Shown in pieces: positions 36,530 through 40,185 of a DNA stretch of 43,316 bases. The stretch spans positions 1-43,316 of the forward strand of contig JAOADV010000005.1 in the NCBI GenBank assembly GCA_026417135.1, in the 5' to 3' direction. How positions within the stretch are numbered: the stretch's first letter is position 1; the number at the start of each line of letters is the position of its first letter. A model generated the notes under the pieces. That model was given only the letters and a program-made list of their open reading frames with translations. It did not search any database and was not told the DNA's origin. The DNA comes from Ignavibacteria bacterium (GTDB taxonomy: Bacteria > Bacteroidota > Ignavibacteria > Kapaibacteriales > UBA2268). A program made the position numbers and the translations under genes.

Positions 36530-38911
36530 TTAAAATTCCAACTCAATGCCTAAAAAGTAATTTCGTTCGGCGGCTGGGAAAAATTCCTTACCTTCGGCAC
36601 CAGCAGCATAAAGCTGATTGAAAAGGTTTCTAACTTGGAGCTTGAAATTTAAACTTTGAAAATAGCCAATATTCCTAAAGCTATAATTTGCATTTAAATT
36701 CACCACAAAGTAGGGGTCGACTTTGTTATCCGCATAGTAATCACCTCGATAAACTAAATGCCTTATCAAATCCTTGTTCTCTGTAATCAAATTTCCATAA
36801 TTATCTGTCCGATAACCTCCGACATACTGACCGTGTAAAGAAGCAAAAAATCCACCATATTCATAGCTAAGCCTAATGTTACCCATAAAATCTGGAAAAC
36901 CAGAGATTGGATTATCTTTAAACGATATTTTTACAGAGTCGTAGGTAAAGAAATCGTAGTCGACTATTCTATTGTTTGAAAGAGTTGCATTTCCATAAAA
37001 AGAAAGTTTGCCAAAATCACTCTCGACAATTGTGCCTATTGCTTCCAATTCCAATCCGTAATGATGAGAACGCGGTATGTTTTCTTCAATTGGGTTACCA
37101 AAAATATCAATTCTTCCCGTTTTAGCAAGCTCGTCTGCGTAGCTCATAAAGTAAAGATTCGTGTTGAAGTTGAAATTATCGGAAATCTTGAAATTCGAGC
37201 CAAACTCAATATCGAGCATACTTTCGGGTTTTAGCAAAGGTTTGCTAAAATCGTAGCGAATTTCATTTCCAACTTGTTTGAATTCGAACTGAGGCTTAGC
37301 TCCAAAGTATGAATCTTCGGCAGGATAAAGATTTCGCATCCGAGGTTCTCGCGAAGTGTATGCAACGAAACCAAACAAATTCCAATCTGGACTCAACTTG
37401 TAACTAAATCCAATTCTTGGGTTGAAAAACAAATATTTTATATCGAACAAGAAATTTTCGCCACCAACACGTTTACCATCGATATTTGTAAAATAAACAT
37501 ATTTCCCACCAGCCTTTTCATTTTTTATAGCATATCTTTGATAGTTCAGTTGTGCTTCGGCAAAAACGGAAAGCTCATCCAAAATGTAATATTGGTTGCG
37601 AACGAAACCAGAAAACATATCGCGGAAGCCATCTATACTATAAACTTTGTAATCTGGATTAAAGTTAGTCGGAAGGTACTCGGCAAAACGAATTTTCCCC
37701 CAACGAACAGAGCGATGGAGACGCATTTCCAACCCAGCAGTTAATTCGTTTTTACCGTATTTCCATACAATTCGTGGAATCCATCCGCCGTGTTTATTTC
37801 CAACAAAGCCACGAAATATTGTTCCAGTCGGATTTTGAGAAGGCGAAAATCCATACTCGCTTGTAAGGCGAAGCATAAAAGTATCTGCCCAACTTGCATC
37901 ATAATCGAAGAAACCATCGCCCGTGTAATAAAACAATATTGAAAGAAACCTTAAATCTGGGCTGATTTGCCAATCGTTAAGAATTTCGTAATGTGGTTGC
38001 GAAAATTCTTCGATTTCTTGTTTACGTCTTTCGACAGAAAATAGAACATTCTTTCCTGTGCTGTCGTAGGTCCAAAAGCCCAAATTATACCTACGTTTTG
38101 TCAAATCCTTAACGAATTCTTTTGGCACACCAGTATAGTCCAAGCCATCGGTAAAAGGGCCACCAAAAATATTGACTTGGGTCGAAAAATTATCGTCGAA
38201 ACGAGCTGCACTAAAAAAGTAGCTATTCAAAAAAGCATAAGAATGATTTCTATATCCTAAAGAATTTGTACGCGACAATCTACCATAAAATGCATATTTA
38301 TCGACTAAACCAGAGGAAAATTCTATCGAATATTTCGTCACATTTGCTTTTATCTCGGAAGGGTCACCATTACCAAATTCTTGAAATCCTATTCCAGTGA
38401 AAAGCTTGACACTCCGCCTTTCAAGAAAATAGCCTGTCGTAAAATTTATCGACCCACCTATTGCAGCAGAGCCGTAATGATTTAATCCTGCTCCTCGTTG
38501 GATTTGCACTTGTTGGACATTTGGCATAAAATCGGGGAAGTCTATCCAATAAACATTGTGGTCTTCGGGGTCGTTTTGTGGCACCCCGTTAATCATAACC
38601 GAAATGCGTCTTTGGTTAAATCCCCGCATAGTCATATTAGAATAGCCAATATCATTACCGCTTTGAGAATAGGTTATTATCGAAGGTAGTTCGCTGAGCA
38701 ATCTTGGGATGTCTTGTGTGGTATAAATTGGCTCGATTTGTTTGTAACTAAGCTCGGAAAAGGGAATTGGAGTTTCACCTCTAATCGCACGAGTTGAAGT
38801 TACAGTTACGCTTGGTAGAACGAATTTTTTAAGTGTGTCGCTTGCTTCTTCATTAGCAAGCAAAGCTGTTGCAAGAATGAAAAGAACCAAGGGAAACATA
38901 ATTTTAAACAT
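36530..38911 (-). CDS. TonB-dependent receptor under TPP riboswitch: predicted thiamine (or precursor) outer-membrane importer
   Basis: The 793-residue protein has a signal peptide (~1-19), a plug domain (~35-150; SVTVTSTRAIRGETPIPFSEL, MTMRGFNQRRISVMINGVPQ, GAGLNHYGSAAIGGSINF) and a barrel ending in the aromatic terminal strand YFLGIELEF. It lacks the carboxypeptidase-regulatory domain of the receptor at 2309-5146. Its mRNA leader carries a TPP riboswitch, so the substrate is very probably thiamine, a phosphate ester or its pyrimidine precursor. Riboswitch-controlled TonB receptors of this kind are known from Bacteroidota thiamine regulons. The ATG at 38911 follows AAGGTGG at good spacing. 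No inner-membrane thiamine transporter or thi gene is in the window. Confidence 0.92.
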   Translation of the reverse strand: MFKIMFPLVLFILATALLANEEASDTLKKFVLPSVTVTSTRAIRGETPIPFSELSYKQIEPIYTTQDIPRLLSELPSIITYSQSGNDIGYSNMTMRGFNQRRISVMINGVPQNDPEDHNVYWIDFPDFMPNVQQVQIQRGAGLNHYGSAAIGGSINFTTGYFLERRSVKLFTGIGFQEFGNGDPSEIKANVTKYSIEFSSGLVDKYAFYGRLSRTNSLGYRNHSYAFLNSYFFSAARFDDNFSTQVNIFGGPFTDGLDYTGVPKEFVKDLTKRRYNLGFWTYDSTGKNVLFSVERRKQEIEEFSQPHYEILNDWQISPDLRFLSILFYYTGDGFFDYDASWADTFMLRLTSEYGFSPSQNPTGTIFRGFVGNKHGGWIPRIVWKYGKNELTAGLEMRLHRSVRWGKIRFAEYLPTNFNPDYKVYSIDGFRDMFSGFVRNQYYILDELSVFAEAQLNYQRYAIKNEKAGGKYVYFTNIDGKRVGGENFLFDIKYLFFNPRIGFSYKLSPDWNLFGFVAYTSREPRMRNLYPAEDSYFGAKPQFEFKQVGNEIRYDFSKPLLKPESMLDIEFGSNFKISDNFNFNTNLYFMSYADELAKTGRIDIFGNPIEENIPRSHHYGLELEAIGTIVESDFGKLSFYGNATLSNNRIVDYDFFTYDSVKISFKDNPISGFPDFMGNIRLSYEYGGFFASLHGQYVGGYRTDNYGNLITENKDLIRHLVYRGDYYADNKVDPYFVVNLNANYSFRNIGYFQSLNFKLQVRNLFNQLYAAGAEGKEFFPAAERNYFLGIELEF

Positions 38912-38916
38912 AACGC

Positions 38917-38990
38917 CACCTTACGAATAGTTCAACATATCAAACTATCCGCTTGGAGGCTTGTCGAGGATTAATACTGGAATTGTAGGG
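38917..38990 (-). promoter_or_regulatory. Putative riboswitch expression platform with sequestered ribosome binding site
   Basis: On the minus strand CCCTAC (38990-38985) is perfectly complementary to GTAGGG (39010-39005) in the aptamer's conserved 3' core. It can also pair at five of six positions with GTAAGG (38924-38919), which overlaps the AAGGTGG ribosome binding site. GCCTCC (38960-38955) can likewise pair 5 of 6 with GGTGGC. No U tract follows any stem, so translational rather than transcriptional control is favoured. Confidence 0.45.
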
Positions 38991-38996
38991 TTTTGC

Positions 38997-39080
38997 GTCC
39001 GTTTCCCTACGCCAGCATTACCTGGATCAGGTTCCAGGGGTATCCTCTCAGCCCAAAAATCTTGAGCACCCCCAACGGAC
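38997..39080 (-). promoter_or_regulatory. TPP riboswitch (THI element) aptamer
   Basis: Read on the minus strand, the region contains the conserved blocks GGGGGTGCTC, GGGCTGAGAGGATACCCC, GAACCTGATCCAGGTAATGC and GCGTAGGGAAA in order. P1 is closed by GTCCGT (39080-39075) pairing with ACGGAC (39002-38997). These match the thiamine pyrophosphate aptamer consensus closely, including CUGAGA and the CUGAUC...UAAUGC core. It lies 85 nt upstream of the TonB receptor start on the same strand. High TPP should repress the receptor. Confidence 0.96.
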
Positions 39081-39085
39081 AATAA

Positions 39086-39093
39086 CAAAATTA
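39086..39093 (-). promoter_or_regulatory. Possible -7 element (TAnnTTTG) for the riboswitch transcript
   Basis: TAATTTTG on the minus strand ends 5 nt before the first base of P1, so transcription would start almost exactly at the aptamer. No convincing -33 TTG was found in the very AT-rich upstream DNA. Confidence 0.45.
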
Positions 39094-39285: not shown

Positions 39286-40185
39286 TTACTTTGATTCGCC
39301 TATGATAAATGGAGGGGTTCCTTTGCCAGTGCCAACAAGGATAATTTTCGAATTCGGGGAATTAACCAGCTCTTTCTGAACCTTGATAAGCTCAAATTGA
39401 ATAATTTTGTCGGTTAAACCAGCATTGATAATTCTTTGTGCATCTGCTATGCCTTGTGCTTCGACGCGCTTACGCTCGGCCTCTTGACGTTCTTTTTGAA
39501 GAACAAACTCCATTCTTTGTGCCTCTTGAACAGCAGTAATTTTTCTTTCGATGGATTCTTTGACCGATGGTGGCAAAGTTATATTTCGAACAAGTAATCT
39601 TTCGAGAATTATACCTCTTTTTTGAAATTCATCGTAGATTTTTTCCTTAATTCTCTGCTCGAATTCTTCCCTCTTATCGGAGAACAAAGAAATTGCATCG
39701 TAATAAGTTGCACTTTCGCGAATACCAGTTCGAGTGATTGGCCTTATAATCTTATCTTGATAATTCATTCCTATTTCACGGTATATCTTTGGAGCTTGGT
39801 CTGGATAAATTCGATATAACACGGTCAAATCTATCGTTACTTCGAGCCCATCCCTACTGAGAACCCGAATTGCATCGTCGGCCGAATGTGCGGATTCGTC
39901 GGTTTGGCCACTCATAGTGTAATTTTGAGTTTGTATGCTCATTTCTCGAATCTCGATAAAGGGATTTACGAAATTTAAGCCTTCGTACAAAACATTTGGC
40001 TGAACCTTTCCAAATAAAATTTGAACGCCAACGTGCCCAGCATCGACTTGTCGAATTGTTGCTGTCAGAAAGCCAACGAAAGAAACTAACAATCCTATTA
40101 TTATTGCACCCTTCTTGTATTTACCCGGGGTAATCGAAAAAATTCCTAATGCAAGTATTATTAGACCGATTGCAAGAAGAAGCAT
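39286..40185 (-). CDS. SPFH/prohibitin-family membrane protein
   Basis: The 299-residue protein has two N-terminal hydrophobic segments (~1-18 and ~24-44), then an SPFH (Band 7) domain (~45-215; RQVDAGHVGVQILFGKVQ, GLNFVNPFIEIREM). A charged coiled-coil follows (~205-250; QKERQEAERKRVEAQGIADAQRI, written here as overlapping runs QKERQEAERKR and EAQGIADAQ) and a C-terminal tail with IILVGTGKGTPPFI. This order matches prohibitin-type proteins that form large rings in the membrane and modulate proteases. No FtsH or NfeD-like partner is adjacent. It starts 28 nt after the YhdH gene and is probably co-transcribed. Confidence 0.92.
   Translation of the reverse strand: MLLLAIGLIILALGIFSITPGKYKKGAIIIGLLVSFVGFLTATIRQVDAGHVGVQILFGKVQPNVLYEGLNFVNPFIEIREMSIQTQNYTMSGQTDESAHSADDAIRVLSRDGLEVTIDLTVLYRIYPDQAPKIYREIGMNYQDKIIRPITRTGIRESATYYDAISLFSDKREEFEQRIKEKIYDEFQKRGIILERLLVRNITLPPSVKESIERKITAVQEAQRMEFVLQKERQEAERKRVEAQGIADAQRIINAGLTDKIIQFELIKVQKELVNSPNSKIILVGTGKGTPPFIIGESK

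What the first reader, a model, noticed from the sequence alone, without database searches (positions are those of the whole stretch)
38911..39093. TPP riboswitch with a probable complete three-way translational switch on a TonB receptor
The aptamer is unmistakable. Downstream, CCCTAC (38990-38985) can pair perfectly with GTAGGG in the aptamer core or, at 5 of 6 positions, with GTAAGG overlapping the ribosome binding site. Model: without TPP, CCCTAC holds the aptamer strand and translation proceeds; with TPP, the aptamer keeps GTAGGG, CCCTAC is freed and masks the ribosome binding site. The promoter -7 element ends 5 nt before P1, so the RNA begins at the aptamer.
Basis: partly seen in the sequence, partly recalled or inferred. 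Interest (0 to 1): 0.6.

Follow-up and report, generated by a model that had tools for sequence, protein, structure and literature searches.

The report
Vitamin B1 switch on receptor gene
A known kind of vitamin B1-sensing RNA sits in front of an outer-membrane receptor gene and most likely shuts off its translation when the vitamin is plentiful; the switch is real and shared by relatives, but a different RNA strand from the one first proposed probably hides the ribosome binding site.

Summary
The TPP aptamer is real (RF00059, 77.6 bits, E 9e-14, window 39083-38987, minus strand). It is the only one found in the genome and its match ends 75 nt before a TonB receptor gene. A homologous receptor follows the aptamer in 43 of 45 family loci and 23 of 25 other loci of the order. 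The better mask is a conserved hairpin, GCGGATAGTT/AACTATTCGT, closed by GCCTCC against GGTGGC at the ribosome binding site. Its competitor, CCTCCAAGCGGA, can pair with the aptamer's P1-P2 5' strand; CCCTAC, TTCCAG and ATCCTC add anti-aptamer pairs. Anti-P1 pairing recurs across the order (0 of 5000 permutations as good over 35 genera), but inside the family the test is not significant (0.14), and predicted SD occlusion is no stronger than with shuffled platforms family-wide. This is the E. coli thiC/tbpA "anti-P1" design (PMC5234074, PMC11487190, passages) in a Kapabacteria lineage: a new member of a known kind.

The parts
39086..39093 (-). TAATTTTG, promoter -7-like element (TAnnTTTG; motif recalled)
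   Evidence: Position. TAnnTT[TC]G occurs within 40 nt upstream in 43 of 70 leaders, in 41 of those 43 ending 0-4 nt before the Rfam match (no shuffle control). No sigma-70-like site found. No TSS data.
38987..39083 (-). TPP riboswitch aptamer RF00059, P1 39080-39074 / 39003-38997
   Evidence: 77.6 bits, gathering 54.3, E 9.1e-14, full model 1-105; the only match in the genome
39069..39079 (-). TCCGTTGGGGG: P1-P2 5' strand, partner of the anti-P1 strand
   Evidence: Of seven aptamer segments the only one clearly targeted over the family, mean z -1.76
38985..38990 (-). CCCTAC, anti-aptamer segment 1, pairs GTAGGG 39010-39005 (P4 3' strand)
   Evidence: 30 of 30 cells canonical in 5 congeners, all invariant; P 0.96-1.00 in unconstrained folds
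38977..38982 (-). TTCCAG, anti-aptamer segment 2, pairs CTGGAA 39037-39032; in the window CCAGTATTA (38980-38972) can instead pair TAATGCTGG (39020-39012)
   Evidence: 34 of 35 cells for the 7-bp version in 5 congeners; the window's MFE uses the second option
38966..38971 (-). ATCCTC, anti-aptamer segment 3, pairs GAGGAT 39047-39042
   Evidence: 33 of 35 cells for the 7-bp version in 5 congeners
38948..38959 (-). CCTCCAAGCGGA, anti-P1/P2 strand; contains the anti-SD CCTCC
   Evidence: -16.8 kcal/mol with the P1-P2 5' strand, shuffle p 0.037; 59 of 60 cells in 5 congeners (34 of 35 plus 25 of 25)
38923..38952 (-). Sequestering hairpin GCGGATAGTT / AACTATTCGT, 10 bp
   Evidence: 50 of 50 cells canonical; platform alone beats shuffles in 5 of 5 congeners (0, 0, 0, 1, 2 of 150 as good), not in the next genus G009 (20 of 150)
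38955..38960 (-). GCCTCC, anti-SD, pairs GGTGGC 38920-38915 in the TPP-bound model
   Evidence: CUCC:SD 16 of 20 cells; antiSD:SD pairing 0.60 in the aptamer-forced fold of the window at all four 3' ends
38915..38922 (-). Ribosome binding site AAGGTGGC
   Evidence: Duplex with the 16S tail -6.1 kcal/mol
36530..38911 (-). TonB-dependent outer-membrane receptor, 793 aa, probably for thiamine
   Evidence: PF00593 E 2.2e-21, PF07715 E 6.9e-14; substrate inferred from the riboswitch

Best explanation
A TPP-responsive, translation-level OFF switch of the anti-P1 kind on a probable thiamine-uptake TonB receptor. Without TPP, the downstream strand CCTCCAAGCGGA pairs with the aptamer's P1-P2 5' strand TCCGTTGGGGG. 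In this genus CCCTAC, TTCCAG and ATCCTC also pair with the aptamer core, so the aptamer is dismantled, the anti-SD CCTCC is occupied and the ribosome binding site is more open. With TPP bound while the RNA is being made, P1 and P2 hold their own strands; CCTCC is free, closes the GCGGATAGTT/AACTATTCGT hairpin onto GGTGGC, and translation of the receptor is blocked. Shown by sequence: aptamer, receptor, conserved hairpin, conserved complementarity. Inferred: TPP binding, the direction of the switch, ribosome access, the receptor's substrate.
For: Aptamer and receptor homologues downstream in 66 of 70 loci. In 5 of 5 congeners the islands CCCTAC, TTCCAG, CCTC, CCTCCA, CGGATAGTT and AACTATTCGT are kept while the spacers between them vary. 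Hairpin better than shuffles in 5 of 5 congeners. Of seven segments only the P1-P2 5' strand is clearly targeted (mean z -1.76, sem 0.24, 20 family genera; -1.14, sem 0.39, 15 further genera). Own platform fits own P1-P2 strand better than swapped ones over 35 genera, 0 of 5000 permutations; for example ACTTTAGGGG faces CCCCTGAAGT and CGTTTGGGG faces CCCCAAACG. Forcing the anti-P1 helix instead of the aptamer raises SD openness in 5 of 5 congeners, in the window 0.66 against 0.17. No terminator-like site. In 5 of 5 congeners no ThiC and no NMN/PnuT-family hit but a thiamine pyrophosphokinase, so control of uptake makes sense. The same design is described in E. coli thiC (PMC5234074, passages) and tbpA (PMC11487190, passages).
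Against: Inside the genus no pair changes on both sides: 5 congeners test conservation only. Inside the family the swap test is not significant (0.14), and permutation ignores kinship. Anti-P1 complementarity reaches shuffle p 0.05 in only 20 of 42 family and 11 of 24 other leaders. In the aptamer-forced state the SD is no more occluded than with shuffled platforms (family 0.26 against 0.26, p 1.0, lower in 9 of 19 genera; all 0.24 against 0.25, p 0.56). The gain in openness, anti-P1 minus aptamer, is modest (+0.14 against +0.07 shuffled, p 0.11 for 19 family genera; +0.15 against +0.07, p 0.019 for 27), and one genus falls. In unconstrained folds the window shows no switch if the RNA ends at the start codon, two congeners (G002, G003) hardly switch at any end, and results move with the 3' end. 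The neighbouring genus G009 does not beat shuffles for either hairpin (20 of 150) or anti-aptamer (46 of 150). The anti-aptamer state lies 10.0-14.9 kcal/mol below the aptamer state in the model, so the switch would have to be kinetic. SDs are weak in most other ORFs of the window.
Confidence: 0.7

Rival explanations
1. One reading: CCCTAC alternates between GTAGGG in the aptamer and GTAAGG at the ribosome binding site.
For: CCCTAC:GTAGGG forms with P 0.96-1.00 in unconstrained folds of 5 of 5 congeners; CCCTAC against GTRWGG keeps 5 of 6 pairs in all 5.
Against: P(CCCUAC:SD) 0.000-0.001 with the aptamer held; forcing it costs 7.3-9.7 kcal/mol, as it competes with the 10-bp hairpin. A mismatch at the same pair in all 5.
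Confidence: 0.06
2. The SD hairpin is constitutive and the anti-P1 complementarity does not switch it; TPP acts otherwise, for example by Rho-dependent termination or RNA decay.
For: In the unconstrained fold of the window ending at the start codon the SD hairpin coexists with the anti-aptamer core (antiSD:SD 0.59 free, 0.60 aptamer-forced); aptamer-forced SD occlusion equals shuffled platforms family-wide; E. coli TPP switches also act on mRNA level (PMC11487190, passages).
Against: Forcing the anti-P1 helix opens the SD in 5 of 5 congeners; the anti-P1 strand overlaps the hairpin's 5' arm and the anti-SD; the strand recurs across the order.
Confidence: 0.18
3. The complementarity to a G-rich P1-P2 strand is a by-product of SD-complementary pyrimidine tracts and has no role.
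For: Individual shuffle p-values are modest (20 of 42 family and 11 of 24 other leaders at 0.05 or less); family swap test 0.14.
Against: Complementarity extends through P1 (CGG) and follows divergent P1 sequences: 0 of 5000 permutations over 35 genera, 0.24% over the 15 genera outside the family.
Confidence: 0.06

Closest known systems
E. coli thiC TPP riboswitch (PMC5234074, passages seen)
   Same: TPP aptamer; anti-P1 stem in the TPP-free state that excludes both P1 and the RBS-sequestering stem; aptamer 5' region (C7-G16) protected in that state
   Different: Controls thiC, with Rho termination and pausing studied there; here a TonB receptor and, in this genus, extra anti-aptamer segments against the core; no experiments here
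E. coli tbpA (thiB) TPP riboswitch (PMC11487190, passages seen)
   Same: Anti-P1 ON state, SD sequestered with TPP, transporter gene
   Different: ABC transporter operon; sequences not compared here
Bacteroides thetaiotaomicron OMthi BT2390 TPP riboswitch (PMC5613172, passages seen)
   Same: TPP riboswitch upstream of a TonB thiamine receptor; no significant change of the transport operons' expression with thiamine, which fits translational control
   Different: That paper calls the mode of action in Bacteroidetes uncertain; a 2019 preprint (bioRxiv 867226, title seen only in the reference list of PMC7366714) names transcription or translation control in Bacteroides. B. thetaiotaomicron also has pnuT and thiamine synthesis genes; PnuT-family and ThiC hits were not found in the 5 congeners

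Membership tests
TPP riboswitch (RF00059) | Score above the curated gathering score over the whole model | tested here: met
   77.6 against 54.3 bits, positions 1-105
TPP riboswitch (RF00059) | Conserved core CUGAGA, ACCUGAUCC, GCGUAGGGA (core recalled and seen in the Rfam consensus) | tested here: met
   Present at 39051-39046, 39032-39024 and 39012-39004
TPP riboswitch (RF00059) | Binds TPP | not testable with these tools
   Needs binding or in-line probing
Translational anti-P1 OFF switch (thiC/tbpA type) | Downstream strand complementary to a P1 strand, excluding P1 | tested here: met
   CCTCCAAGCGGA with TCCGTTGGGGG, -16.8 kcal/mol, shuffle p 0.037; 59 of 60 cells in the genus
Translational anti-P1 OFF switch (thiC/tbpA type) | RBS in a stem that excludes the anti-P1 stem | tested here: met
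   Anti-P1 strand 38959-38948 overlaps the hairpin's 5' arm 38952-38943 and the anti-SD 38960-38955
Translational anti-P1 OFF switch (thiC/tbpA type) | Ligand-dependent change of RBS accessibility | tested here: inconclusive
   Constrained folds open the SD in 5 of 5 congeners, but the effect is modest and mixed over the family, and aptamer-forced occlusion equals shuffled platforms
Thiamine TonB receptor (OMthi) | TonB plug and barrel | tested here: met
   PF07715 and PF00593
Thiamine TonB receptor (OMthi) | Transports thiamine | not testable with these tools
   Inferred from the riboswitch and no ThiC found; no sequence relative among solved structures at E 1e-3; NCBIfam hits all far below cut-off

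The most novel reading that the evidence does not exclude
In this genus the expression platform is close to a segment-by-segment antisense of the aptamer (P4 3' strand, J2-4, J3-2 and P1-P2 5' strand, in antisense order), so that the nascent leader has only a very short window to bind TPP before the aptamer is dismantled for good; and it works through a masked SD in a genome where most other genes of the window lack a strong one.
Probability: 0.4. Interest if true: 0.42.

Novelty: new member of a known kind. Interest (0 to 1): 0.3.

Why it matters
It gives a concrete, testable ON/OFF model for TPP control of probable thiamine TonB receptors in a Bacteroidota-related lineage. For Bacteroidetes the mode of action was called uncertain (PMC5613172, passage) and classical SD sequences are said to be lacking (PMC7366714, passage). 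In the window 9 of 28 ORFs have an SD at -4 kcal/mol or better at the chosen start, against 29 of 42 TPP leaders of the family, 16 of 20 genera, so the switch may preserve SD use locally; both sets had starts chosen partly by SD strength. For these probable auxotrophs it is the only TPP switch found in each of the 5 genomes of the genus.

Tried and rejected
CCCTAC as the mask: rejected. Intrinsic terminator: none found. Covariation within the genus: none, because the paired aptamer segments are invariant. The MAFFT alignment A1 was misregistered by one base in the anti-aptamer, so I counted pairs by motif in a script and did not use the count of structure pairs. Viral contigs: no match. ThiG: weak hits in 4 of 5 genomes, E 7.5e-5 at best, over the cut-off in 4 of 5 once frame neighbours are added. 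I checked two of the seven hits: the own genome's is the dihydrouridine synthase DusB (351 bits; PF01207) and one of the two of G001 is IMP dehydrogenase (646 bits). The other five hits, in G001, G002 and G004, were not scanned. Receptor substrate: NCBIfam gave only hits far below cut-off, solved structures none.

Rows set aside: of 70 loci, L048 (thiS-like operon by eye), L057 (contig end), L061 (long insert) and L014 (no clear start) were dropped, leaving 66 (42 family, 24 other). For one search, 13 more with uncertain start codons were dropped, leaving 53 leaders in 27 genera, with 15 shuffles each. Start codons were chosen partly by SD strength and seven were set by hand; this favours finding SDs. 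The aptamer pairs of other genomes were lifted from the window by alignment and are sometimes a few pairs short, which can overstate the cost of the aptamer state there.
Full report
WHAT IS THERE. The minus strand at 39083-38987 carries a complete TPP aptamer (RF00059, 77.6 bits, E 9.1e-14), the only match in the 2.24-Mb genome. Its P1 starts 5 nt after a TAATTTTG element (39093-39086). The start codon at 38911, 75 nt after the end of the match, opens a 793-aa TonB receptor (Plug and barrel domains). The sequence statements in the finding are correct.

HOW WIDESPREAD. The aptamer is found in 5 of 5 genomes of the genus, 45 of 54 of the family and 53 of 60 in the mixed relative set. I took 70 aptamer loci, 45 of the family and 25 of other families of the order. 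A homologue of the window's receptor follows on the same strand in 66 of 70: 43 of 45 and 23 of 25. The four without are L048, L057 (contig end), L070a and L070b.

THE MASK. In the five congeners the stretch between aptamer and start codon can be cut into kept islands (CCCTAC, TTCCAG, CCTC, CCTCCA, CGGATAGTT, AACTATTCGT) separated by spacers that vary in sequence and length. NCGGATAGTT and AACTATTCGT make a 10-bp stem, 50 of 50 cells canonical, continued by CUCC against the SD, 16 of 20 cells. The platform alone folds better than shuffles in 5 of 5 congeners (0, 0, 0, 1 and 2 of 150 as good), but not in G009 of another genus (20 of 150). With the aptamer forced, the SD G's are unpaired at 0.00-0.02 in 4 of 5 congeners and at 0.25-0.39 in the fifth (G003), over four 3' ends.

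THE COMPETITOR. The strand CCTCCAAGCGGA (38959-38948) contains the anti-SD and part of the hairpin's 5' arm and is complementary to the P1-P2 5' strand TCCGTTGGGGG: -16.8 kcal/mol in the window, shuffle p 0.037, and 0.010-0.027 in the four congeners; 20 of 42 family leaders and 11 of 24 others reach 0.05. Of seven aptamer segments tested against the downstream stretch, only this strand is clearly targeted in the family (mean z -1.76, sem 0.24, 20 genera) and in 15 genera of other families (-1.14, sem 0.39). J3-2 (-0.77) and the P4 3' strand with GTAGGG (-0.68) follow weakly in the family (0.00 and -0.24 outside it); the rest lie between -0.27 and +0.36 (segment names recalled). Where P1 has diverged, the downstream strand has often diverged with it. 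Permuting partners over 35 genera gave 0 of 5000 as good as the real match; for the 20 family genera alone 14% did as well, as their P1-P2 strands hardly differ; for the 15 others 0.24%. This speaks for co-evolution at the level of the order, with the caution that permutation ignores kinship.

THE GENUS EXTENSION. In the window's genus CCCTAC, TTCCAG(G) and ATCCTC(T) pair with GTAGGG, CCTGGAA and AGAGGAT: 30 of 30, 34 of 35 and 33 of 35 cells, with no change on both sides. They lie in antisense order to the aptamer, and the window's minimum-energy fold joins them into one long imperfect structure, using TAATGCTGG:CCAGTATTA. The free state lies 10.0-14.9 kcal/mol below the aptamer state; 5, 15, 6, 19 and 3 of 150 shuffled platforms go as low in the five congeners, 46 of 150 in G009. 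My inference is that TPP must bind during transcription, before 38985-38948 is made, as described for thiC in E. coli (PMC5234074, passages).

DOES IT OPEN THE SD? Forcing the anti-P1 helix instead of the aptamer raises SD openness in 5 of 5 congeners (window 0.66 against 0.17; others 0.51/0.33, 0.61/0.17, 0.43/0.37, 0.58/0.35). Over 27 genera the rise is +0.15 against +0.07 with shuffled platforms (p 0.019); over the 19 family genera +0.14 against +0.07 (p 0.11). Fifteen of 27 genera rise by more than 0.1 and one falls by more than 0.1. Against the model, the aptamer-forced state does not occlude the SD more than shuffled platforms do (family p 1.0, all p 0.56). Unconstrained folds agree for three congeners and hardly for two, depend on the 3' end, and show no switch for the window if the RNA ends at the start codon. 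So the direction is supported, not proven.

PHYSIOLOGY. In the five congeners ThiC is not found (0 of 5; control 13 of 14), PF04973 NMN/PnuT-type transporters are not found (0 of 5; control 5 of 14), and thiamine pyrophosphokinase is found in 5 of 5; in the own genome it passes the NCBIfam equivalog cut-off. Weak ThiG hits occur in 4 of 5 genomes; the two scanned are DusB and IMP dehydrogenase. These bacteria probably import thiamine and convert it to TPP, and their one TPP switch controls the outer-membrane step. Other synthesis genes were not searched.

COMPARISON. The proposed mechanism is that of the thiC and tbpA switches of E. coli, where an anti-P1 stem excludes P1 and exposes the RBS (PMC5234074 and PMC11487190, passages). 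TPP switches on TonB thiamine receptors are known in Bacteroides, where the transport operons did not respond significantly and the mode was called uncertain (PMC5613172, passages). A 2019 preprint whose title names transcriptional or translational control in Bacteroides was seen only in a reference list. Kapabacteria with riboswitch gave one paper, on vitamin exchange; TPP riboswitch with Chlorobi and TonB gave none. The library lacks most subscription papers and all bioRxiv preprints, so this is no proof of novelty.

Noticed in passing
window 1-43316, 28 ORFs of 120 aa or more: SD sequences are weak in most ORFs of the window (first-ATG mean duplex -1.27 against -0.55 kcal/mol in an upstream control; 5 of 28 against 2 of 28 at -4 or better), while TPP leaders of the family have clearer ones (29 of 42 with chosen starts).
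   Followed up: partly
L070 (G044), two copies: Two similar TPP riboswitches about 1.1 kb apart, one before a thiC-like gene (by eye), both with a strong anti-P1 strand matching their unusual P1 (shuffle p 0.003 and 0.017).
   Followed up: partly
L075 2699-3286 (-): A frame that looks to me like the end of a TonB receptor barrel lies about 0.8 kb upstream of the thiamine pyrophosphokinase gene of the window's genome; Pfam and NCBIfam gave no hit for the fragment.
   Followed up: partly
window 39286-40185 (-): A Band 7/SPFH protein gene precedes the riboswitch on the same strand, ending 202 nt before the aptamer match.
   Followed up: no
L003, L035, L036 (genus g20): Predicted SD exposure goes the opposite way, clearly in two of these three leaders and slightly in the third; the start codon chosen there is uncertain.
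   Followed up: no
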